A stretch of 61,323 bases of DNA from an uncultured Mycoplasma sp. (lineage in GTDB: Bacteria > Bacillota_I > Bacilli_A > Mycoplasmatales > Metamycoplasmataceae). The DNA lies in the NCBI GenBank assembly GCA_947039505.1, contig CAMQYZ010000003.1, positions 111,323-172,645 on the forward strand. Reading direction: 5' to 3'. The notes beneath the pieces were generated by a model. The model saw nothing but the letters and a program-made list of their open reading frames with translations, was not told the DNA's origin and searched no databases. Both the position numbers and the translations under genes were made by a program. Shown here in pieces: positions 1,632-53,482 of this stretch; position 1 is the stretch's first letter; every line of letters begins with the position of its first letter.

Positions 1632-1913
1632 ATGTCAAGAGGTTTATATAGCGATGAAGCAGAGCAAGCATGTGACGATGCAGACGAATGCACTTGTCAA
1701 GAAAATGATTGTCATGAAAACAATCATAAAGAGTTTGGGTTATGTGAAGACCACATGCTCTATGGCTCTCATGAAAGTGTTGAAAATCAAAAAAATAGTG
1801 CTTATAGATGAAATGTTGATCACATAATACCAAAAAGTAAGAACGGATCAAATAAAAGGAGCAATAAACAAGCTGTACATGTTGACTGTAATGAAGATAA
1901 GGCAAATAATTAA
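1632..1913 (+). CDS. Small HNH endonuclease, copy A
   Basis: A 93-residue HNH nuclease. A cysteine/histidine-rich N-terminus (CTC...C...C) precedes the conserved block YGSHESVENQKNS and then the HNH core WNVDHIIPKS...NKQAVHVDCNEDKAN. The core His residues and the CN..K..N end match the HNH metal-binding fold. Trp comes from a TGA. Two further paralogues lie in this window (3581-3862 plus, 37214-37486 minus), nearly the same length and sharing HESVE.Q.NS. This copy and the one at 3581 point the same way and bracket an ATPase/TOPRIM cassette. Such stand-alone HNH proteins can be restriction or homing-type nucleases; which one is not decided here. Confidence 0.82.
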
Positions 1914-3203: not shown

Positions 3204-3579
3204 TCAAAAAGATCCAGTTTTTAAAACTTCTATAGTTTGTGAAGGAGAGATGGATAGATCTTTAATTATTTTCTTGAAAGTAAAATTATACAAATCAAAA
3301 CAACCAGTTTGTAAAACACATTCTGAAGTAATTGGTGGAACTATAAAATTAGATAATGTAAAAGTTAATAAAAATAAAATTTATTCTAGCAAATATATAC
3401 ACACTTTAGTTGTTTTAGAAAAAATATTATTACACTTAAAAAATATAATCGATGATGAAAAAAATGATTACACTCTTATAAAATTTGAAGAAAATTTAAA
3501 ACACTATAATTCCCATGAAAAACTATACACAAACTTGATAGAATATATAAATCATTTAACCATAGAAAGAGAAAACTAA
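3190..3579 (+). CDS. TOPRIM/RloB-like partner of the AAA ATPase, short
   Basis: A 129-residue protein starting at an ATG that overlaps the ATPase stop; a TTG three bases upstream is the alternative start. The N-terminal segment TSIVCEGEMDRSLIIFL looks like the first strand of a TOPRIM or RloB domain, with the invariant Glu in VCEGE. Overlapping AAA-ATPase and TOPRIM/RloB genes are the layout of AbiL, RloAB and PARIS-type defence, where the second gene is the nuclease effector. RloB proteins are usually nearer 200 residues, and I do not see the second acidic pair or the NP.fE.W block. This copy may therefore be internally deleted or a divergent form. Translation is probably coupled to the ATPase. 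Confidence 0.6.
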   Translation: MKKNNQKDPVFKTSIVCEGEMDRSLIIFLKVKLYKSKQPVCKTHSEVIGGTIKLDNVKVNKNKIYSSKYIHTLVVLEKILLHLKNIIDDEKNDYTLIKFEENLKHYNSHEKLYTNLIEYINHLTIEREN

Positions 3580-3580
3580 A

Positions 3581-3862
3581 ATGGCACAACTTAAATACAG
3601 CAATAAAATTGAAACAATATGAGAGAATGCTCCTTATTGTGATTGCGATAGACAAGATTGTCATATAAACGCTCATCGTTTATGTAATATTTGTTATGAA
3701 ACAATTTTTTATGGGGCTCATGAAAGTGTTGAAAATCAACGAAATAGTGTTGGTGCATGAAACGCTGACCATATCATTGCTAAGTCCAATGGTGGAGGCA
3801 ATGCAACTTCAAACTTACAAGCTGTTCATATTTATTGCAATAGAGAAAAAGGTAATAGATAA
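3581..3862 (+). CDS. Small HNH endonuclease, copy B
   Basis: A 93-residue paralogue of the HNH gene at 1632, same length and strand. It has CDCDRQDC and CNIC zinc-type cysteines, the family block YGAHESVENQRNS, and the HNH core WNADHIIAKSNGGGN...NLQAVHIYCNREKGN. It begins one base after the stop of the TOPRIM-like gene, so it is likely the last gene of that cassette. The N-terminus KIETIWENAPYC is closer to the copy at 37486 (KIEEIWEKAPIC) than to copy A. All three Trp codons checked are TGA. The metal-binding residues are intact and an active nuclease is plausible. Its target is unknown. Confidence 0.82.
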
Positions 3863-4084: not shown

Positions 4085-4762
4085 ATGAAAAATAATCAAA
4101 ATTGAAAAAAATTTATAATAATTATTATTTCATTTTCCATTATTTCCTTTATTGTTATTTGAACTATTCCTAAAACTTATACACCTCTTCCGCTTAAAAT
4201 TTTTTTAACAATTTTTATATCAGTTGTTGTTTTATTTACAATCATAATTAGCTCAACAGACAGGAAGAGTTCTAAATATTTTAAATATAATGTTTCAAGT
4301 AAAACATATGAAGGCAATAATATAGAAACATGAAATAAACTGAAAAAAAAGTATTTAATAACATCTATTTTTGGTAGTATTTCAAGTTTAATTTCTATTA
4401 TTTTAATGATTACTACTTTATATTTTATTGCGTCAAATCCTAACCAAGAAACAATACAAAATGTATTAACTTCACCAATTTTTATACTTTTTATTCTTAC
4501 AATAATATTGGGAATAATGACATTTATCATTTTATGGATAAATCGTTTTTATCTCAATCAAATTTTTACTTCTCATGAATTTCCTAAAGAATTAAAATTA
4601 AAAAATATAAAATGATTTTTTGAAAATAAAAAAAGATTTTATATTTTTATATATTTACATACCTCAATCGTAAGTGGCCCGCTAGCTATAATAACATATA
4701 AAGAAATTGAAAACAAAATAATTAAAGAAGATGTAGGTGAAGTTAATCAAAATCAAATATAA
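4085..4762 (+). CDS. Hypothetical integral membrane protein
   Basis: A 225-residue protein I do not recognise. It has four or five hydrophobic segments: about residues 7-27, 36-55, 92-115, 128-150, and a weaker one near 185-205. The first is preceded by NNQNWKK and the loops carry positive charge. The start ATG follows AAAAGGATAG, a usable Shine-Dalgarno sequence. It sits between the ATPase/TOPRIM/HNH cassette and a DUF4238 gene on the same strand. Small membrane proteins next to defence genes are often effectors or anchors, but nothing in the sequence proves this. Confidence 0.6.
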
Positions 4763-4901
4763 ATAATAACTGATAGTGTAACTTTAGTATTTATATTTTT
4801 TAGATACTTCTTTAATTGCAAAATGTACAGATTTTGTAATGATTTTATCATTGGAAAGTTGATTTTTTTATATACTTTTAAATAAGGAATATAATTCATT
4901 C

Positions 4902-15961: not shown

Positions 15962-15997
15962 ATAATGTAATAAAATTATATATAAGGATTGGTGCAC

Positions 15998-18739
15998 ATG
16001 ATTAAAACAAATAAAGTATTATTAGGATTAGGTTTGTCAACCGCCGCCGCATTACCTCTTGTAATTGTATCTTGTAGTTCTGGAGAAGAAGTTATTGAAG
16101 ACAACGTATTGACAACAGAAGTTACTAATAATTTTTTTGCTACTGGTGGTAAGTGAGAAGGAAAAACAGCTTTAGTGGCAGCAGATTTTGAAGGTTTTGA
16201 AAACATTGGCAATTCTGCTTTGAGTGGTAAATCTTTAGTTAGCGTTATTTTCTCTGATTCAATAACTAAAATTGGGCAAAATGCTTTGGCAAATAATGCA
16301 TTAACATCATTAAACATTCCAAATAGTGTTATTGAAATCGGTGATGGAGCATTTAACGATAATCCATCGTTAACAATAGATTCACCAATTACATTGCCTG
16401 CACAATTTGATACTCTTGAAGAACGAAGAAGAATTGGTTTACCTTTTGAACAACCAGCAATAAACTTAGAATTAACTCCTAAGACAAATATTGAAGCAAT
16501 TATGGAAAGTGAAGTAGCACATCTTACTGAAGTAGATCAAAATGTTAATGCTGCTTCACTAGCATTAATCAAAAAGCTTTTTGATATTAATGTAACAAAT
16601 GATGAAAATTTAACTAATGGATTAAAAATTAAAATGGTAACAGATGGATTAAACAAAACAATTTCATTAACTACTATTGAAGGTTTTACAATTAATGGAA
16701 CTTTAAATACAATCGATTCAACAAGCTTTACAATTGATATTCCGCCAATTGATCCACCAATTACAGGCAATGTATTAACAGAAGAACTTGTTAGAAGTTT
16801 TTTTGCTACTGGTGGTAAGTGAGCAGAAAAAACGGCTTTAGTGGCAGCAGATTTTGAAGGATTTACTTCTATTGCTGATTCTGCTTTGAGTGGTAAATCT
16901 TTAGTTAGCGTTATTTTCTCTGATTCAATAACTAAAATTGGGCAAAATGCTTTGGCAAATAATGCATTAACATCATTAAACATTCCAAATAGTGTTATTG
17001 AAATCGGTGATGGAGCATTTAACGATAATCCATCGTTAACAATAGATTCACCAATTACATTGCCTGCACAATTTGATACTCTTGAAGAACGAAGAAGAAT
17101 TGGTTTACCTTTTGAACAACCAGCAATAAACTTAGAATTAACTCCTAAGACAAATATTGAAGCAATTATGGAAAGTGAAGTAGCACATCTTACTGAAGTA
17201 GATCAAAATGTTAATGCTGCTTCACTAGCATTAATCAAAAAGCTTTTTGATATTAATGTAACAAATGATGAAAATTTAACTAATGGATTAAAAATTAAAA
17301 TGGTAACAGATGGATTAAACAAAACAATTTCATTAACTACTATTGAAGGTTTTACAATTAATGGAACTTTAAATACAATCGATTCAACAAGCTTTACAAT
17401 TGATATTCCGCCAATTGATCCACCAATTACAGGCAATGTATTAACAGAAGAACTTGTTAGAAGTTTTTTTGCTACTGGTGGTAAGTGAGCAGAAAAAACG
17501 GCTTTAGTGGCAGCAGATTTTGAAGGATTTACTTCTATTGCTGATTCTGCTTTGAGTGGTAAATCTTTAGTTAGCGTTATTTTCTCTGATTCAATAACTA
17601 AAATTGGGCAAAATGCTTTGGCAAATAATGCATTAACATCATTAAACATTCCAAATAGTGTTATTGAAATCGGTGATGGAGCATTTAACGATAATCCATC
17701 GTTAACAATAGATTCACCAATTACATTGCCTGCACAATTTGATACTCTTGAAGAACGAAGAAGAATTGGTTTACCTTTTGAACAACCAGCAATAAACTTA
17801 GAATTAACTCCTAAGACAAATATTGAAGCAATTATGGAAAGTGAAGTAGCACATCTTACTGAAGTAGATCAAAATGTTAATGCTGCTTCACTAGCATTAA
17901 TCAAAAAGCTTTTTGATATTAATGTAACAAATGATGAAAATTTAACTAATGGATTAAAAATTAAAATGGTAACAGATGGATTAAACAAAACAATTTCATT
18001 AACTACTATTGAAGGTTTTACAATTAATGGAACTTTAAATACAATCGATTCAACAAGCTTTACAATTGATATTCCGCCAATTGATCCACCAATTACAGGC
18101 AATGTATTAACAGAAGAACTTGTTAGAAGTTTTTTTGCTACTGGTGGTAAGTGAGCAGAAAAAACGGCTTTAGTGGCAGCAGATTTTGAAGGCTTTACTT
18201 CTATTGGTGAAAATGCTTTTCAAGGTCTTAATAATTTATCTAGCGTTGACCTACCTAATGAAATAATTAGAATTGAAAATCAAGCATTTTTTCAAACACA
18301 TTTAACACACATTACTTTAGGAAATGGAGTTCAACATATAGGTGATAGTGCTTTTTCTCATTGCTTTATCACAGAAATTATTTTGCCATCTAGTTTAAAA
18401 ACTATGGGCGAACAAGCTTTTTCACAAAACAATCTGACAAACATTATCATTCCTTCATCTTTAAAAATCATTCCTAATATAGCATTTACATATAATAAAT
18501 TAACATCAATAACTATTCCTAATTCAGTAACTCATATTGGTGATGGTGCTTTTTTTGATAACGAACTAACAGAAGTTAACATTCCTGACTCTGTAACATC
18601 TATTGGATCAACGGCATTTCAATATAATCGTTTTGCGATAATTCCTACTTTACCAAACGGAATTCTTGTTGGCGATATTTTTGATAATCAAAAAGTAAAT
18701 CCATCTTTGGAAATATATACAAGAAAAACCATCAAATAA
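15998..18739 (+). CDS. BspA-like lipoprotein 2 with three identical 222-residue repeats
   Basis: A 913-residue lipoprotein, in one frame once the TGA in each GGKW is read as Trp. It has a signal peptide with lipobox VIVSC, then three copies of a 222-residue module. Each module has FFATGGKW.KTALVAADFEGF, LRR_5 repeats (SITKIGQNALANN, SLNIPNSVIEIGDGAF), and a spacer beginning NLELTPKTNIEAIMESEVAHL and ending PPIDPPITGN. The last quarter is a long LRR_5 domain with the IYTRKTIK tail. The modules are identical at DNA level over almost two full periods, so copy number can change by recombination or slippage and alter antigen length. The Shine-Dalgarno sequence is AAGGATTGG. Confidence 0.88.
16214..18191 (+). 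repeat. 666-bp tandem repeat, about 2.97 copies, virtually identical
   Basis: Sequence 16214-17525 appears to recur unchanged as 16880-18191, a shift of exactly 666 bases (222 codons), as far as I can compare by eye. Divergence appears only before 16214 and at 18191-18192. Such identity without silent changes points to recent amplification, or homogenisation, of a surface-protein module. Confidence 0.88.
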
Positions 18740-18819: not shown

Positions 18820-18850
18820 ATAATTAAGAAAATTAAAAGGATTGGTGAAC

Positions 18851-19918
18851 ATGATTAAAACAAATAAACTTTTATTAGGATTAGGTTTATCAACTGTAGT
18901 AGGATTACCTCTTATGATAGTATCTTGTAGTTCTGGAGATGAAATTACAATCACTAATTTAGAATTAACACCTAAAACAAATATTGGGATAATTACAGAA
19001 AATGAAGTTGCTAAACTTAATAACAATTATCAAAATGTTAATGATAGTTCATTAACATTAATCAAAAAGCTTTTTGATATTCAAGGAACAACAACTGACC
19101 AAAATTTAATTAGTGGTTTACAAATTAAATTGTTATCAAATGAACTAAACAAAACAATCTCATTAAATGTTAATAATGGTTTTAAAATTAATGGAAATTT
19201 AACTAAAATTGATTCCATGAATTTTGTCATTAATGGTCCAGTTATTCCGCCAATTGATCCACCAATTACAGGTAATATATTAACAGAAGAACTTGTTAGA
19301 AGTTTTTTTGCTACTGGTGGTAAGTGAGCAGAAAAAACGGCTTTAGTGGCAGCAGATTTTGAAGGCTTTACTTCTATTGGTGAAAATGCTTTTCAAGGTC
19401 TTAATAATTTATCTAGCGTTGACCTACCTAATGAAATAATTAGAATTGAAAATCAAGCATTTTTTCAAACACATTTAACACACATTACTTTAGGAAATGG
19501 AGTTCAACATATAGGTGATAGTGCTTTTTCTCATTGCTTTATCACAGAAATTATTTTGCCATCTAGTTTAAAAACTATGGGCGAACAAGCTTTTTCACAA
19601 AACAATCTGACAAACATTATCATTCCTTCATCTTTAAAAATCATTCCTAATATAGCATTTACATATAATAAATTAACATCAATAACTATTCCTAATTCAG
19701 TAACTCATATTGGTGATGGTGCTTTTTTTGATAACGAACTAACAGAAGTTAACATTCCTGACTCTGTAACATCTATTGGATCAACGGCATTTCAATATAA
19801 TCGTTTTGCGATAATTCCTACTTTACCAAACGGAATTCTTGTTGGCGATATTTTTGATAATCAAAAAAATTCAATATCAAATAAAAAAATATCAAATAAT
19901 ACAAATAATATGTACTAA
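18851..19918 (+). CDS. BspA-like lipoprotein 3, altered C-terminus
   Basis: A 355-residue lipoprotein with lipobox MIVSC. One spacer module (NLELTPKTNIGIITENEV...INGNLTKID) comes first, then FFATGGKWAEKTALVAADF and the LRR_5 domain. From about 19280 to 19865 the DNA matches the last domain of the preceding gene (shifted by 1173 bases), apparently without a change, which suggests gene conversion or recent duplication. Identity ends at GDIFDNQK. After that the normal tail is replaced by NSISNKKISNNTNNMY and a TAA, so the 3' end is a recombination or deletion scar. The promoter and AAAAGGATTGG leader are intact. Confidence 0.85.
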
Positions 19919-20038: not shown

Positions 20039-20067
20039 TTGTTTTTTTATCTATATTTTAGTATAAA
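20039..20067 (+). promoter_or_regulatory. Promoter of lipoprotein 4
   Basis: TTGTTT, 17 bases, TATAAA, 31 bases before the ATG at 20099, with the shared leader and Shine-Dalgarno sequence TAAAGGATTAGTG. Confidence 0.6.
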
Positions 20068-20098
20068 ATATTTAATGAAAATTAAAGGATTAGTGAAC

Positions 20099-21964
20099 AT
20101 GATTAAAACGAATAAACTTTCATTAAAATTAGGCTTATCAACTATAATAGCATTGCCTCTTATGATAGTATCTTGTGATTCTGATGAAAAAATTACCATC
20201 ACTAATTTAGAATTATCTCCTAAAACAAATATTGGAATAATTTTGGAAAGTGAAGTAGCACATCTTAGTGAAGTTTATCAAAATGTTAATGATCATTCAT
20301 TAGCATTAATTAAAAAGCTTTTTGATATTCAAGGGACAACAACTGACCAAAATTTGATGAATGGTTTGCAAATTAAGATGGTATCAAATGGATTAAATAA
20401 AACAATTTTATTAAGTGTTAATATCTGATTAAATAACAGTAATGGCTTTAAAATTAATGGTAATTTAACTAGAATTAATTCAAATAATTTTACCATTGAT
20501 ACTCCTCCAGTTTTAGGTGATATATTAACAGAAGAACTTGTTAGAAGTTTTTTTGCTACTGGTGGTAAATGAGCAGGAAAAACAACTTTAGTGGCAACAG
20601 ATTTTGAAGGATTTACTTCTATTGCCAATTCTGCTTTAAGTGGTCAATCTTTAGTTAGTGTTATTTTCTCTGATTCAATAACTAAAATTGGGCAAGGTGC
20701 TTTGGCAAATAATGCATTAACATCATTGAATATTCCAAATAGTGTTATTGAAATCGGTGATGGAGCATTTGCAAATAATCAACTAACAATAGATTCACCA
20801 ATTACATTGCCTGCACAATTTGATAATCCATTGGAGCGCGAAAGAATTGGTTTACCTTTTGAACAACCAGCAATAAACTTAGAATTATCTCCTAAGACAA
20901 ATATTGAAGCAATTGCGGAAAATGAAGTAGCACATCTTAGTGAAATTAATCAAAATGTTGATGATCGTTCATTAGCATTAATTAAAAAGCTTTTTGATAT
21001 CCAAGGGATAGAAACAACTGAGCAAAATTTAATGGATGGTTTGCGAATTAGAATAGTATCAAATGGATTAGATAAAACAGTTTGATTAACTACTAATGAT
21101 GGTTTTAAAATTAATGGTAATTTAACTGAAATTAATTCCATGAGTTTTGTCATTGATACTCCACCAGTTTTAGGTGATATATTAACAGCAGAAATTGCTA
21201 ATAGTTTTTTTGCCGTTGGTGGTAAGTGAGCAGGAAAAACAGCTTTAGTGGCAACGGATTTTGAAGGATTTACTTCCATTGGCGATAGTGCTTTTCAAGA
21301 TCTTTCTCATTTATCTAGCGTTGACCTACATGATAAAATAATTAGAATTGAGGATCGAGCATTTTATCAAACAAATTTAAGACACATTACTTTAGGCAAG
21401 GGGGTTGAACACATAGGATTCGAGGCATTTTCTCGTTGCTCTATAAATAAAATTATTTTGCCATCTAGTTTAAAAACTATGGGTGAAGAAGCTTTTTCAG
21501 AAAACAATCTGACAAACATTATCATTCCTTCATCTTTAAAAATTATCTCTATTGGAGCATTTTTATCAAATAAATTAACATCAGTAATTATTCCTGATAC
21601 AATAACTGAAATTGGAGAATATGCTTTTCTTATTAATAATTTAACACAAATTAACATTCCTGACTCTGTGGTTTCAATTGGTCATAGTGCATTTGCTGTT
21701 AATAGTTTATCTGGAGAATTGGATTTACATGATTTGATAAACTTAGAAAGTATTGAATCAAATGCATTTCGTTTTAACAAAATATCATCCATTATTTGAC
21801 CAACCAATAGTAAAATAAACAGTATTGGATTAGAAGCTTTTGGTTTAAATAATTTTGGAACAAGTATCCCAAACTTTCCACCCGGATTAACTACAGAAAC
21901 TAACGGTGGAATTTCTCCAGAACAAATATTTACTAATAGAGGGCGAAAATTTTTCTTATCTTAA
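20099..21964 (+). CDS. BspA-like lipoprotein 4
   Basis: A 621-residue lipoprotein with lipobox MIVSC. Module order is spacer, LRR block (FFATGGKWAGKTTLVATDF), spacer, then a longer C-terminal LRR_5 domain with an ending not shared by the others (LSGELDLHDLINLESIESNAF, then GLNNFGTSIPNFPPG, last residues RKFFLS). The spacers are diverged versions of the NLEL.PKTNI module, so this gene is an older relative of the neighbouring gene with identical repeats. Five TGA codons (ISVNIW, GGKW twice, TVW, SSIIW) are Trp in one continuous frame. An upstream GTG/ATG alternative near 20039 lacks a Shine-Dalgarno sequence; the ATG at 20099 is preferred. Confidence 0.85.
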
Positions 21965-37213: not shown

Positions 37214-37486
37214 TTAATTTTTTATTCTATTGCAAACAACGTGAACCGCTTGCAAGTTATTTATGTTGTTAGTACCACCATGTGATTTCGGAATAATGTG
37301 GTCTGCATTTCAAACAAATCTACTATTTTTTTGAGCTTCAACACTTTCATGTGATCCATACATAATTGTTTCGCTACAAATACCACAAATTCTGTGGTTG
37401 TTTTTTGAACAATCTCCGCTACAATAGCAAATTGGTGCCTTTTCTCATATTTCTTCTATTTTGTTTGTATATTTATATTTAGCCAT
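37214..37486 (-). CDS. Small HNH endonuclease, copy C
   Basis: A 90-residue paralogue of the HNH genes at 1632 and 3581, on the opposite strand. It has zinc-type cysteines CYCSGDC and CGIC, the family block YGSHESVEAQKNS, and the HNH core WNADHIIPKSHGGTN...NLQAVHVVCNRIKN. The start ATG at 37486 follows AAAGGAGAAATAACAA, a strong Shine-Dalgarno sequence. It is convergent with the deaminase gene and has no partner gene on its own side. The nuclease residues are intact. Confidence 0.83.
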
Positions 37487-47139: not shown

Positions 47140-47178
47140 GATTTTCTCCAATCATATCCAAATTTTTATCATTGAATT

Positions 47179-48321
47179 TTATTTAATATTTTTCATTATC
47201 TCTGCAACAACACCAACTATTAAAGCATTTCCCATTGTAAAGTATCTTGCTCTATTTGGCATTTCTGAAGTTCAATTATCATCAAATCCATTTAAGCGTT
47301 CACATTCAACAGGAGAGAGAAATCTTGGACCTTGCTTTGTTTCTATCATATGAGTTGATCTATTTGCCGTTGCTTCACTAGTTAACATTGTTCTTGATGC
47401 TTTATTTAAATCATCATATAAATTCATTTTACCTTCAGAATAGTTATATTTGGTTCCATCACTTTTTTCTCTAATGAGACGTTTATGACTTTTGTAATAT
47501 TCCATTTTTTCAAACTGATGACTATTCAATAATAACTCTTTATTTATTTTTTTGTCAATAAGTATATCTTTAAGATAAATAAATTCACCTTCATATTGAC
47601 TAATAAATTTGGAGCTTTCTATTTTTCCACCTTTCATAACTCCATATTCTAAGAATTTTCCCTCATCATAGGTATCAGAAAGGTTTTGTAAGTCATTATA
47701 AGTATTTATATCTATTTCTAATGGTTTATCTATTAACTTGAACTTAAAAGCATGATTAAAAATGTTTTGTTTTTTCTGAGATTGTTTATAAGCAAAGATA
47801 AAAACTCTTTTTCTTCTTTGTGAAAAGCCAAAATCAGAACCATTGTTCACCATTCACTCAACGTTATAACCATTATCATTAAAACATTTTAAAATAATAG
47901 CAAAATCTCTTCCTCTTTGTTTAGCAGGAGACTTTAATAAACGATCTACATTTTCAAGCAAGACATATTTTGGATTGCGATTTTTCAAAATTCAATCAAT
48001 TTCTCATCAAAGAACACCCTTGATCCCTTCAATACCTTTAGCCTTTGTAGTTGCTACTGAATAATCTTGACAAGGAAATCCTCCGACTAGAAGGTCAAAT
48101 TTTTTAGGGATTTTTTCTTTCGCAATAGATATATCTTCATTTGAATGTTTATCAGAAACTCCAAAATGTCTTTGATAGCAATCAAAAGCATATTGCATTT
48201 TTTTATTTGGTTCTCATTGATTAGCTCAAATAAAATCAAAATCTTTACCTGATTTTTCAGCTGCTACCCGAAAACCACCAACACCAGCAAATAATTCAAC
48301 TACTTTAATTGGTTTCGACAT
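47179..48321 (-). CDS. DNA cytosine-C5 methyltransferase of the Sau3AI-type system
   Basis: A 380-residue C5 methyltransferase. Motif I VVELFAGVGGFRVA, motif IV VGGFPCQDYSVA with catalytic Cys, motif VI VLLENVDRLL, motif VIII FSQRRKRVFIF, and motif X MGNALIVGVV are all intact. It is divergent from a Sau3AI-family endonuclease by 95 bases, so the likely target is GATC with methylation of C. The same strand continues into the AIPR gene 39 bases after its stop. The intervening region holds a perfect palindrome with a -10 box on each strand. Trp residues are TGA-coded. Confidence 0.88.
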
Positions 48322-48326
48322 TCAAC

Positions 48327-48359
48327 TTGATTCCTTTTTGGTTATTATATTATAATAAC
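48327..48359. promoter_or_regulatory. Palindromic bidirectional promoter of the Sau3AI-type locus
   Basis: GTTATTATATTATAATAAC (48341-48359) is a perfect 9-bp palindrome around one T. TATAAT lies in each arm, so it can be a -10 box in both directions. On the plus strand TTGATT (48327-48332) sits 18 bases before the TATAAT. The arrangement suits coordinated control of the divergent methyltransferase and endonuclease. Confidence 0.5.
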
Positions 48360-48416
48360 ATACAAAGAAAAAATGCTAATTATAGATTAAATAAATAATT
48401 GGCACTTGGAGGAATC

Positions 48417-49736
48417 ATGGAATATACAACTCTCGATCAAATAATTAAAAAATGTGAAGAAATTAAGAATAAGAAGGTGAAGGACATTGTTTCTTCTGAA
48501 AATGTTTTAATATCAGCCGATAAGGGGAAACTAGGAAAATTAATTGAAGAAGAAGTATTTGGGATTAAAGCAAATAGTAATAGTGCTCCTGATTTTGAAA
48601 AATTAGGGATTGAACTAAAAGTAACTGGCTTAATTAAGTATAAGAAAAAAGATAATGAAGGAAGAAAATATAAGGCAAAGGAAAGAATTTCTCTAGGAAT
48701 GATTAATTATATCTCAATTCTGGATGAACCTACTTTTGAAAAATCACATATCTATTTCAAAATGCAAAAAACACTTTATATTTTTTATGAATACAGATAT
48801 GACAAACCAATGTCTGAATGAAAGATTGTTGATTTTAAATATGTTGAACTAAATTCATCAAACAATATCAAAACTCTAACGGAAGATTATAATATTATTT
48901 TTTCAAAAATTAAAGAAGGTAAAGCAGAGGAATTAAGCGAAGGACTAACTAAACAATTAGGAGCATGTACAAAAGGAACTGGAAAATCATTAGTTAAACA
49001 ACCAAATTCTAAAACATTAGTAAAACCTAGAGCATTTAGTTGAAAACCAAACCATGTTAACCAAATCTTTTATAGCGAAGGTATTGAAATTCCTGAAAGT
49101 GATGTAATGAATTTTATTATTGATAAAATTCAACCATTTCATGGACTTAGTATCAGAGAAATCTACAAAAAAATGAATTTGTCTATTCCTGAATCTAAAA
49201 ACCAAAAAGATACTATTGTTAATAAATTATTGGGAACTAAAAGTTATGCACAAATCCCGAATATTCAACAAAGTGTTTTTAAAATTAAAAATATAGAGCT
49301 CAAAAATAACGGCAAACTAAAGGAAGAAGTTGGTTTAATGAATGTGAATATCAGTGAATTTGAGAATGATATACCTTTTAATGAAAGTGAATTATATACA
49401 TTTTTAATTTCTTACAAATTTCTTTTTATAATATGACAAAAAATAGAGGAAGAATCTATTTTTAAAGAGATTAAACTTTTCCAATTTGATAGCTTGCTAG
49501 TTAAAAAGGCTGAATTTGTTTATAACGATACTAAAGAGAAGTTTTTAAATGGCATGAAACTAGAAGAAGTTAAGGGCAGAAGAATGTCTAACCTTATTCA
49601 TAAGTCTAATAATCAAGGATTTCACCTAAGACCTCATGGACAAGATAGCAAAGATACTATGACAACTCCTTTTGGACAAGTAATTACCAAACAACAATAT
49701 TGATTAAACGGCAACGAAGTAGAAGATGTTGTTTAA
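48417..49736 (+). CDS. Sau3AI/MutH-family type II restriction endonuclease
   Basis: A 439-residue Sau3AI-type enzyme that cuts GATC. The MutH-like N-terminal domain has KGKLGKLIEE (E44), PDFEKLGIELKVTG with D59, E66, K68, and the following KYKAKERISLG. The C-terminal half is a second, non-catalytic MutH-like domain, as in Sau3AI (SKNQKD, HKSNNQGFHLRPHGQDSKD). ATG at 48417 follows GGAGGAATC, a strong Shine-Dalgarno sequence. It is divergent from the C5 methyltransferase. The similar but inactivated copy follows 1.2 kb downstream. Four or more TGA are Trp. Confidence 0.88.
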
Positions 49737-49769
49737 GTTATTAGTTTAAAATAATGTTATAATTATTAA

Positions 49770-50714
49770 ATGAGTAATGTTTGAAAAAAACTTTTTGGGA
49801 TAAATAATAAAAATGTTGAAATAAATCCAAACATTGATTTACAGAATAACAATAATAAAAAAATCAATATTAAGTCATACAATAGCACTATAACTATAAA
49901 TACAACTTCTTTAAATTCAGATATTAATAAAAAGTTAAATGCTGATTTATTACAAAAAGAAATTCAAGAAAAATATGTATATAACTTAGAAATTCCAAAT
50001 CAAGAAAAGAAGATAAAAGCTATATCTTCCATCCAACATCTTAAGCAACTTTATGAAATTGGTGAATTTACAAAATTTAGTAGTAAAGAAGTTTTTGACA
50101 TCATAAAGTCAAATGATTTATTAGACAAAATGATTGAAAGTCAAGATTATAATGAAAGAACTAAAATAATTCAAAATTTAGATTTTTTAGAAAAATCAAC
50201 AAAAGAAGAAAAAATAATTTTAGTTTGATTAACTTTATTTGTGATATTTGCAAAATTTAAAACTGGGAAAGATGTAATTAAAAGTATTGATTTTTATGAT
50301 TCAAATAATTTTTTAGAAAAAGTTAGGATTTCTTATGATTTAAGAAACATAAATGGAAGAGTTAGAGCGTTAAGGTCTCAAGGTTTTTTTGCAAGTTATG
50401 GAGTTTTATATGATTCCATAAGAGTTACTACATTTGATAAAAACGCATTTCAAAATTCAAGTTGAATGTTTGCTTTGAGTCCACAAGAAAAAAACATTTT
50501 TACATTAGAATATATATATAAAAACATTCCTGAAATAGACCTTATTGCTAATGATTTTTTGAATACTAAAAAAGAATTCAATTTAGCTTCTGAAATTGGA
50601 TCTCCTATTATTAATTTTACAAAAACAATTATTAATTTAGAGTTGGCTGCTGAATTACTCTTAAAAAAAATTGATGAAAAAAAGTTTGAAGAAGTATTTA
50701 AGGATATTTTTTAG
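49770..50714 (+). CDS. Hypothetical protein between two Sau3AI-like genes
   Basis: A 314-residue protein, family not recognised. The N-terminus is Asn/Lys-rich and polar (KNVEINPNIDLQNNNNKK), a helical middle follows, and a hydrophobic stretch IILVWLTLFVIFAKF lies near residues 150-165, possibly a membrane or core helix. The C-terminus has SYDLRNINGRVRALRSQGF. It starts 33 bases after the endonuclease stop on the same strand and is likely cotranscribed with it. Two TGA are Trp. It lies between the active and inactive Sau3AI-type genes; whether it acts with either is unknown. Confidence 0.55.
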
Positions 50715-50815: not shown

Positions 50816-50878
50816 AATAAAAGAATAATCAGGCTTCCTTTTGACTTATTTCATAATATAATATGTTTTAAAGAGAAA

Positions 50879-50899
50879 ATGCTAATTAGATATTAGCAT
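50879..50899 (+). promoter_or_regulatory. Inverted repeat before the second Sau3AI-like ORF
   Basis: ATGCTAAT and ATTAGCAT form a perfect 8-bp stem around five bases, just before the TGGAGGC ribosome site. The first copy has only the left arm (ATGCTAAT). It could be an operator or a leader hairpin. Confidence 0.45.
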
Positions 50900-50910
50900 T
50901 TGGAGGCATC

Positions 50911-52236
50911 ATCGAATACACAACACTTGATCAAATAATTACAAAATGTGCAGAAATTAAAAATAAGAAAGTTAAAGATATTTTAACATCACAAAACATC
51001 TTGGAATCCCATGATCAAACACAATTAGAAAACTTAATTAAAAAAGAAGTTTTTAAAATTAAGTTACAGAAAAACAATCCTAATAATTTTGAAAAATTAG
51101 GGATTCAATTAAAAGTAACTGGATTAATAAAATATAAAAAACCTGATAATGAAGGCAGAAAATATAAAGCGAAAGAAATTATTTCCCTAGGATCAATTAG
51201 TGACCAAGTAATTCTTGGCAAACCTAATTTTGAAAAATCAGCTTTATATACTCAAATGCAAAAGACTTTATATGTTTTTTATGAATATAGATATGACAAA
51301 CCAATGTCTGAATGAAAGATTATTGATTTTAAATATGTTGAACTAGATGCATCAACCAATATTAAAACATTAGTAAATGATTATGAACTGATCTTTGCAA
51401 AAATTAAAAAAGGTAAGAGTGAAGACTTAAATCATTCTTCGACAGAGGAATTAAGCATTACTATCCCTAAAAAAATACAACCCAAATTAGAAGGCTCCGT
51501 TTCATCCTGAGAGTTTTTATTAAAACCTAATTATGTTAATAAGATATTTTATAGCAAAAGTGTCAAAGTTAATGATGCTGACGTTATGTTTTCAATCGTT
51601 AATAAGATCCAACCTTTTCATGGATTAACCATTGGAGAAATATATAAGGAAATGAACTTACCTATTCCGGAAGCTAAAAATCAAAAAGATGCCATCATTA
51701 ATAAATTATTAAATACTAAGAGTTATGATGAAATCCTCAACATTAAACCAAGTGTTTTTAAAATTAGAAATATTGAATTAAAAAATAATGGCAAACTCAA
51801 AGATGAGATTGCGTTAATGAATGTTAATGATAATGAATTTTTGAATGATGTTCCCTTTAATGAAAGTGAACTATATACCTTTTTAATTTCTTATAAGTTT
51901 CTTTTCATTGTGTGACAAAAAAGAGGAGAAGAGTCTGTTTTCAAAGATGTGATGCTTTTTCAATTTAATAACAAACTAATTACAAAAGCTGAATTTGTTT
52001 ATAACGATACTAAAGAGAAGTTTTTAACAGGAATGGAATTAGAACGAGTTGGAGACAGAACAATGTCTAATTTGATACATAAATCAAGTAATATAGGGAT
52101 TTTACTAAGACCTCATGGACAAAATAGCAAAGATACGATGGCAACTCCCTTTGGACAAGTAATTACCAAACAACAATATTGACTGAATAGCAATGAAGTT
52201 GAACGAGTAATCGGAAATAATAAGGAATTTGAATAA
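50911..52236 (+). CDS. Catalytically dead Sau3AI-like paralogue without ATG start
   Basis: A 441-codon frame that aligns with the endonuclease at 48417 from end to end and has no TAA/TAG. The start that aligns with the ATG is ATC after TGGAGGCATC; ATC is permitted but poor in code 4. In the active-site block the catalytic residues are changed: E44 to K (LIKKE), D59 to N, and E66 to Q (IQLKVTG), while K68 is kept. The G40 and K36 equivalents are also lost. The C-terminal half is well preserved (SSNIGILLRPHGQNSKD). It is either a late pseudogene or a non-cutting homologue that binds GATC or pairs with the active enzyme. Confidence 0.7.
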
Positions 52237-52272: not shown

Positions 52273-53049
52273 CTAAATTATTTTAAAAACCAAACAATAA
52301 AACATTAATTTAATTATTTTTTCTTTTTTTTGATATAAAATGTTTTTTCCAGTTGATCATAAAAAAATATCTATATTTCTTCTTGATAAATTTTGTAATT
52401 TAAAAAGGATAATAAATTGATTAATTGCAATGTAAAAAGTTTTGTAATTTCTTAATTCAATTCTTTTAAAGTCTATGAATTCTTTCCCAAATTTTTCCTG
52501 ATATTTAGTTATAAATTTATTTTTAAATTCAAATAAAGCTTCTTCTACAAAAGAATCATATATAGAGAAAAATTTATTATTTTGAAAGAAACAAAATTTA
52601 GATGCAAAAGAATAGTATTCGACTTTTCCATCAGACTTTTCATTACTTTCTTTAACTTTAACTTTAGCTAGTTTGTTAACTAATTCCAAACAATTATCAC
52701 TAGGTTTAAATGGATCACTTGCAATTAAACAAGGGTTATACTTTGTTTGTTTATACACATCTACTATATGTTTTGCCACATTGGTAACATGTATATTTTT
52801 AACCCCAGCAGAATAAAAAGTATTTAGCACCGCTACTTTAATAAGCACTTTGTCAACATCAACATTTTCATTATGTTTTTCAAATAATTCAATTAATATG
52901 TCATTATGACGTTGGAAATTTGATTTACAACCATCATTGCCATCACTTTCCTTGAAAATATCTTTTTCAATTTGTAATTTACAACGATAAATTTTATCCA
53001 CAATGCCATTCGCTATTTCTTCGTTTGGTTCTTTTAAATCATATGTCAT
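52273..53049 (-). CDS. Hypothetical protein, convergent with Sau3AI-like copy
   Basis: A 258-residue protein read through one TGA (in FLWSTG) to TAG. I do not know its function. It has a region LIKVAVLNTFYSAGVKNIHV and another, SFASKFCFFQNNKFFSIYDS, that resemble motifs in a poorly described family often found near restriction genes. It is mostly helical. The ATG at 53049 has only a weak ribosome site. It is convergent with the inactive endonuclease copy. Confidence 0.55.
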
Positions 53050-53172
53050 TATTTTTATTATATAAATGATTTTAAAAAAATGCAGAATATTTACAAGAAA
53101 TTAATGAAAGAAATTTAATTTTATCAAGAGTTGTTACAATTAAACAAATACAATAATATAGAAGGATAACAT

Positions 53173-53409
53173 ATGACACAAAAAGAATTACAAGAGTGAT
53201 TTGAAGAATTAGAAAAATTAATGGAAAAACACCCAAGACAGTGAGACACATTTAAACGCACTTCAAGACATTTAGAAAATGTTTCTTGCATCTCTTGTAT
53301 TTATGGATCACCATCAAAAGAGCAATTAAATGAAAACCATCGATTTTCAATAGCAATGAATCCTGGAAGATGTGCTGTTTGTTTTATTAAAACAGAAGCT
53401 TTGCTTTAA
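53173..53409 (+). CDS. Small zinc-ribbon-like protein
   Basis: A 78-residue protein starting 6 bases after GGATAAC, with CISC and CAVC pairs (CxxC...CxxC) that could bind zinc, and the ending FIKTEALL. It has two TGA-coded Trp near the N-terminus (QEWFEE and RQWDTF). The function is unknown. It lies alone between two minus-strand genes. Confidence 0.6.
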
Positions 53410-53482
53410 AATAATTTTAAATTCTAGAAGTCAGTAATAATATGTGGTTACAAAGGTATTTTAAGGTATTAAGGAAATAGTT

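What the first reader, a model, noticed from the sequence alone, without database searches (positions are those of the whole stretch)
50911..52236. Intact-frame Sau3AI homologue with mutated catalytic residues and ATC start
The second copy keeps the whole frame, but E44K, D59N and E66Q remove the active site and the start codon is ATC. A pseudogene would usually gather stops; a long clean frame suggests either very recent loss or a retained DNA-binding or regulatory role (competing for GATC or forming a mixed complex with the active enzyme).
Basis: partly seen in the sequence, partly recalled or inferred. Interest (0 to 1): 0.76.

Follow-up and report, generated by a model that had tools for sequence, protein, structure and literature searches.

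The report
Conserved non-cutting Sau3AI restriction-enzyme twin
Next to a normal GATC-cutting restriction enzyme, this mycoplasma carries a second copy that has lost the ability to cut, and relatives show that evolution has kept that disabled protein, even in genomes where the cutting copy was not found, which suggests it has a job of its own.

Summary
50911-52236 is one clean Mollicutes-code frame of 441 aa, 68% identical to the intact Sau3AI-type enzyme at 48417-49736. It has K44, N59 and Q66, and ATC sits at the start position. E44K is weak evidence, because active homologues carry E or Q there. D59 and E66 are invariant in the active homologues aligned.

The copy is not a fresh pseudogene. 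Orthologues occur in four other species-level genomes of the genus. All have lost E66, the KGxxG motif and the base-recognition motif. Three start with ATG and one with GTG, so ATC is private to this genome. The dead clade is under purifying selection (omega 0.115; own branch 0.23). Expecting 5.5 new stops on its own branch if neutral, none is seen (P=0.004). Two of these genomes show neither the cutting copy nor its methylase. One orthologue is frameshifted.

A second, independently inactivated Sau3AI clade (D59T, no methylase nearby) is conserved in nine genomes of another family of the order.

Best reading: a retained non-cutting Sau3AI protein that binds DNA, mainly through the effector-type C domain, and damps restriction or regulates. 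Retention is well supported; the mechanism is inferred. In this genome the ATC start may mean weak or recently lost expression.

The parts
50911..52236 (+). Catalytically dead Sau3AI-type paralogue, 441 aa, ATC at the start position
   Evidence: NF040973 match residues 6-429, E=1.8e-47, 162 bits against cut-off 300; orthologues in G129, G130, G131, G126
51040..51042 (+). Codon 44: K (E in copy 1; E or Q in active homologues)
51085..51087 (+). Codon 59: N in place of the invariant metal-binding D (N in own, G129, G131; D in G130, G126)
51106..51108 (+). Codon 66: Q in place of the invariant E of ExK (Q in own, G130, G131, G126; K in G129)
51112..51114 (+). Codon 68: K of ExK, kept in all dead copies
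50837..50910 (+). Conserved promoter/leader (TATAAT at 50857-50862, GGAGG at 50902-50906), shared with the active copy and with all dead orthologues
   Evidence: 76-83% identity active to dead over -85..-1, 40-47% further upstream; close matches in the genus only in front of these genes
48417..49736 (+). Intact Sau3AI-type restriction enzyme (D59, E66, K68), 439 aa
   Evidence: PDB 4pxg Sau3AI, E=2.7e-32; NF040973 301.7 bits, cut-off 300
47179..48321 (-). Cognate-type C5 cytosine methyltransferase, divergent from the active copy
   Evidence: PF00145, E=1.5e-66
49770..50714 (+). 314-aa ORF of unknown family in the slot between active and dead copies (a CBASS-like operon occupies this slot in G131)

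Best explanation
The frame is a retained, non-catalytic Sau3AI pseudoenzyme. A Sau3AI-type gene was duplicated together with its promoter/leader. One copy lost the catalytic acids and the base-reading motif of its N-terminal MutH-like domain but kept the overall fold sequence and the C-terminal effector-type domain, and it then spread and persisted in defence islands of this genus. Shown: the losses, their common origin, the shared leader, purifying selection, and occurrence where no active copy was found. Inferred: it binds DNA without cutting, chiefly through the C domain, and so damps Sau3AI-type restriction, either by occupying effector sites or by forming DNA-bound mixed complexes with an active enzyme (resident or newly arriving). 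In this genome the ATC start probably lowers its synthesis and may mark its recent loss.
For: Orthologues with shared derived losses form one clade at 100/100 support. Dead-clade omega is 0.115, likelihood ratio against neutrality 329; own branch 0.23, likelihood ratio 8.7. Dead-clade omega by part: N domain 0.135, linker 0.30, C domain 0.055. Expected 5.5 new stops on the own branch, none seen. Leader conserved in both paralogues although synonymous sites between them are near saturation. Literature: Sau3AI binds two copies of its site as a dimer formed on DNA and cuts only the one held by the N-terminal pair, the degenerate C domain being the effector binder (PMC1189080, PMC548270). A second, independent inactivated clade under selection shows that non-cutting Sau3AI proteins can be kept.
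Against: No binding, expression or interaction data. G129 and G130 show no active copy and no close methylase, so a partner in the same cell is not always available. The G129 branch alone cannot be told from neutral (omega 0.48, likelihood ratio 0.9), and G126 is frameshifted. The ATC start argues for low or no product here. The linker's base-reading motif is lost, so N-domain GATC binding is doubtful. Structure models were too poor to use.
Confidence: 0.5

Rival explanations
1. Functional in the genus but newly silenced in this genome: the ATC start is the first step of decay, and the clean frame is inherited from a lineage that kept the gene until recently.
For: ATC is private here; orthologues have ATG or GTG. 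Own-branch omega 0.23 is nominally above the rest of the dead clade at 0.106 (likelihood ratio 3.5, p about 0.06). G126 shows that decay does occur.
Against: Own branch still differs from omega 1 (likelihood ratio 8.7), and zero stops are seen where 5.5 are expected if neutral throughout. Promoter and ribosome-binding site are intact. Start codons of this gene family vary anyway (ATG, GTG, TTG), so a weak start may be tuning. A base error in the assembly is also possible.
Confidence: 0.35
2. Transcription regulator of the restriction genes: the non-cutting protein binds the leader shared by active and dead genes and represses both.
For: The leader is conserved between paralogues far above synonymous sites and close matches occur only in front of these genes. 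No obvious separate controller gene among the proteins examined beside the system.
Against: The dyad in the leader is not beyond chance in six of seven genes. Conservation may simply reflect a shared core promoter and ribosome-binding site. No DNA-binding test.
Confidence: 0.2
3. Immunity against the restriction system itself: where restriction-modification systems come and go, a dead subunit protects cells that gain the enzyme before methylation, or lose the methylase, from being cut.
For: Genomes with the dead gene but no detected active copy or close methylase (G129, G130). Methylase 3'-end fragments in G126, G127 and G129 suggest repeated gain and loss of the methylase.
Against: Depends on mixed complexes or site competition that nobody has shown. 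The active pair could be missing from incomplete assemblies (G130 86% complete) or vary within the species.
Confidence: 0.25
4. Still a nuclease with a rearranged active site, such as D-QxK, known from other PD-(D/E)XK nucleases (recalled, not tested here).
For: G130 and G126 keep D59 with Q66 and K68.
Against: Own, G129 and G131 have N59; G129 has K66-S67-K68; KGxxG and recognition motifs are lost in all.
Confidence: 0.05

Closest known systems
Sau3AI family type II restriction endonuclease (NF040973; PDB 4pxg)
   Same: End-to-end homology over both MutH-like domains; nearest relative in the cell is a Sau3AI-type enzyme beside its methylase.
   Different: Lost D59, E66, KGxxG and the recognition motif; scores 162 against the curated cut-off of 300; occurs without detected methylase or active copy in two genomes.
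Degenerate C-terminal effector domain of Sau3AI itself
   Same: A MutH-like domain that lost catalysis and was kept to bind effector DNA (PMC548270).
   Different: There it is a domain of the enzyme; here it is a separate full-length protein under its own promoter.
W.PvuII, a small peptide proposed to modulate PvuII subunit association (from memory, not checked)
   Same: A non-cutting relative of the enzyme's subunit that could form inactive mixed dimers.
   Different: A short peptide rather than a full-length paralogue.
MutH mismatch-repair endonuclease (PF02976)
   Same: N domain matches PF02976 (35 bits here, 75 in copy 1).
   Different: Stand-alone repair nicking enzyme with an intact active site.

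Membership tests
Sau3AI family restriction endonuclease (NF040973) | Full-length score over the curated equivalog cut-off (300 bits) | tested here: not met
   162.4 bits for the dead copy; copy 1 scores 301.7
Sau3AI family restriction endonuclease (NF040973) | Two-domain length and end-to-end homology | tested here: met
   Profile positions 4-469 of 475 matched, E=1.8e-47
Sau3AI family restriction endonuclease (NF040973) | D...ExK catalytic residues in the N domain | tested here: not met
   N59, Q66, K68; D59 and E66 invariant in the active homologues aligned
Sau3AI family restriction endonuclease (NF040973) | Cognate GATC C5 methylase beside the gene | tested here: inconclusive
   Methylase lies beside the active copy in own genome and G131; no close homologue in G129 or G130, which keep the dead copy
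Sau3AI family restriction endonuclease (NF040973) | Cleavage of GATC | not testable with these tools
   Needs purified protein
Pseudogene | No excess of synonymous over nonsynonymous change | tested here: not met
   omega 0.115 in the dead clade, 0.23 on the own branch, both different from 1
Pseudogene | Frame broken in most relatives | tested here: not met
   Broken in 1 of 4 orthologues (G126); G131 open to contig end
Pseudogene | No usable start codon in this genome | tested here: inconclusive
   ATC with intact GGAGG; translation from it not measurable here
Sau3AI-type effector-binding protein | Binds GATC effector DNA through the C domain | not testable with these tools
   C domain is the most constrained part of the dead clade (omega 0.055), but binding was not measured

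The most novel reading that the evidence does not exclude
Mollicutes have at least twice, independently, turned a Sau3AI-type restriction enzyme into a conserved stand-alone non-cutting protein: once as a promoter-plus-gene unit in the defence islands of this genus, and once as an orphan gene without a methylase in nine genomes of another family. They would act on GATC-bearing DNA as restriction dampers or regulators, a class of restriction pseudoenzymes not named so far.
Probability: 0.4. Interest if true: 0.78.

Novelty: new variant of a known kind. Interest (0 to 1): 0.62.

Why it matters
Inactive nuclease domains inside restriction enzymes are known, but I found no description of a separate, full-length, catalytically dead restriction-enzyme gene kept by selection across species (the literature search was limited to an open-access library). 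If it damps or regulates restriction, it offers a simple answer to how small genomes tolerate gain and loss of a lethal enzyme, and the two independent cases make the idea directly testable. It also warns annotators: such genes may be labelled Sau3AI enzymes although they should not cut.

Tried and rejected
AlphaFold2 models of dead and active copies from five-row alignments were poor (mean pLDDT 45 and 49), so no fold search was run on them. A search of viral contigs found no relatives; plasmid hits were distant Sau3AI enzymes at 22-25% identity. A dyad in the shared leader looked like an operator but is within shuffled expectation except in this gene, so it is not used. Rfam found nothing in the window. 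The first attempt to extract the second dead clade failed on a search string and was redone. A common origin of the two dead clades was tested and rejected (AU p=1e-48). Homology kept only for recombination was rejected, because selection acts on the protein sequence (dN well below dS). E44K as a catalytic loss was downgraded, because active enzymes have E or Q there. One paper look-up (start-codon efficiency) was not held, so no number is given for ATC initiation.

Full report
OBSERVATION. The window is Mollicutes DNA (genome G000, 804 kb in 8 contigs) that must be read with TGA as Trp. Under that code 50911-52236 is one open frame of 441 codons. It is 68% identical to the intact frame at 48417-49736, which matches solved Sau3AI (4pxg, E=2.7e-32) and passes the curated Sau3AI cut-off (301.7 bits against 300). 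The second copy carries K44, N59, Q66 and K68, and ATC where copy 1 has ATG, four bases after an intact GGAGG. The description is accurate at the stated coordinates.

WHICH LOSSES COUNT. I aligned about 40 Sau3AI homologues from the phylum. D59, E66 and K68 are invariant in the active ones. Position 44 is E or Q, and the active copy of sister genome G131 has Q44, so E44K is weak evidence. Two further motifs, KGxxG (36-40) and CTKG...RAFS (184-208), are conserved in active enzymes and lost in the dead copy. By alignment to MutH the second one covers the base-reading loop (the role of that loop is from general knowledge of MutH). So the N domain has lost both metal ligands and, probably, site reading.

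RELATIVES. Searches of 135 genomes of the family and 12 of the genus found orthologues of the dead copy in four other species-level genomes: G129 (92%), G130 (83%), G131 (84%, cut by the contig end) and G126 (frameshifted in two places). All lack E66 (Q in four of the five copies, K in G129) and share a 5-residue deletion in the linker. N59 is in own, G129 and G131; D59 remains in G130 and G126. They form one clade at 100/100 support (G126 was left out of that tree because of its frameshifts). E66 was therefore lost before these species split. Start codons are GTG, ATG, ATG and ATG; ATC is unique to this genome.

SELECTION. I fitted a codon model of my own (table 4, F3x4) to five dead and two active genes. 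The dead clade has omega 0.115 (likelihood ratio against 1 = 329). The terminal branch of this genome has 0.23 (likelihood ratio against 1 = 8.7, against the rest of the dead clade 3.5). If that branch were neutral throughout, 5.5 new stops would be expected and none is seen (P=0.004). By part, the dead clade has omega 0.135 (N domain), 0.30 (linker) and 0.055 (C domain), against 0.07, 0.01 and 0.06 in the active pair. The C domain is thus as constrained in the dead proteins as in the active ones, while the linker that carries the recognition motif is relaxed. Limits: few sequences; mosaic divergence between N and C parts suggests recombination; the G129 branch alone cannot be told from neutral (omega 0.48).

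CONTEXT. Blocks shared with relatives have sharp edges: methylase plus active enzyme (about 47159-49760) and leader plus dead gene (about 50837-52236). What lies beside the dead gene differs in each genome compared: a 314-aa ORF here, a CBASS-like operon in G131 (cyclase and 2TM effector), an AIPR gene in G129, and others in G130 and G126. G129 (98% complete) and G130 (86%) show neither the active copy nor a close homologue of its methylase. The 85-bp leader is 76-83% identical between active and dead genes, against about 44% identity at synonymous sites and 40-47% further upstream, and close matches occur only in front of these genes in the genus.

SECOND DEAD CLADE. It is under purifying selection (pairwise dN/dS 0.04-0.25). 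No C5 methylase lies in the stretch fetched around it (roughly 2 kb each side), whereas an active homologue in the same genus (G159) has one beside it. It is a separate origin: the tree separates the two dead clades with active enzymes between them, and a single dead clade is rejected (AU p=1e-48). Here the recognition stretch is the best conserved part (89%), the opposite of the window's clade, so the two proteins may keep different abilities. It keeps E66 and K68, so its inactivity rests on D59T and the KG change.

MECHANISM. Published work describes Sau3AI as a monomer that dimerises on DNA, holding two copies of its site and cutting only the one at the N-terminal pair, the degenerate C domain binding the effector copy (PMC1189080, PMC548270). 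A protein with the C domain under full constraint and the N domain disabled would be expected to bind effector DNA, or to enter DNA-bound pairs, without cutting. I therefore favour a non-cutting partner or competitor that damps Sau3AI-type restriction. Retention of the protein in the genus I put at about 0.85; this particular mechanism at about 0.5; a regulator acting on the shared leader and an immunity role against incoming systems are live rivals. None of these functions was tested.

THIS GENOME. The ATC start may give weak synthesis, may be the first step of loss, or may be an assembly error; the present data cannot choose. The frame being clean says that selection acted until recently.

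NOVELTY. Degenerate nuclease domains inside enzymes are known. I found no report of a full-length dead restriction-enzyme paralogue conserved as a separate gene (open-access library only). I rate it a new variant of a known kind.

Noticed in passing
L051 (G126 contig C69) 2-253, 3673-3861, 6212-6439, 7610-7783; L018 (G126 C38) 3531-3737; L052 (G127 C27) 1050-1304; L053 (G127 C32) 4750-4827; L054 (G129 C14) 440-562: Fragments of the methylase's 3' end (mostly ending near its stop codon, with varying 5' ends) occur in sister genomes lacking the full methylase. In G126 four lie in one 9.4-kb contig with different genes between them: a helicase, an AbiL/AriA-like ATPase, and a DRT-like reverse transcriptase. 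They look like recombination boundaries of a defence-gene array.
   Followed up: partly
L017 1013-3010 (G131): CBASS-like operon (DncV-like cyclase, 182-aa ORF, 2TM Cap15-like effector) sits exactly between the active and dead Sau3AI copies in G131, where the window has a 314-aa ORF.
   Followed up: partly
L087-L095 (genus g16 genomes): Independent clade of Sau3AI homologues with D59T, one per genome, no methylase nearby, under purifying selection.
   Followed up: yes
L018 (G126), about codon 12 and codon 257 of the dead gene: The G126 orthologue has two frameshifts, one in a poly-A run; could be decay, slippage or assembly error.
   Followed up: no
window 50879-50901: The leader of the dead gene here holds a 9-bp perfect inverted repeat (AATGCTAAT-TAGAT-ATTAGCATT) next to a deletion shared with G131; 0.6% of shuffles reach it.
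   Followed up: partly
window 15989-18739: Long lipoprotein-like ORF (916 aa) with a unit repeated several times nearly identically; neighbours at 18842-19918 and 20039-21964 share the units.
   Followed up: no
window 1632-1913, 3581-3862, 37214-37486: Three small paralogous ORFs of about 90 aa resembling HNH nucleases by eye, scattered in the window.
   Followed up: no
window 52273-53049 and 53130-53416: The 258-aa gene and the short ORF downstream of the dead copy are in the reverse order in G129, again pointing to gene shuffling in the island.
   Followed up: partly
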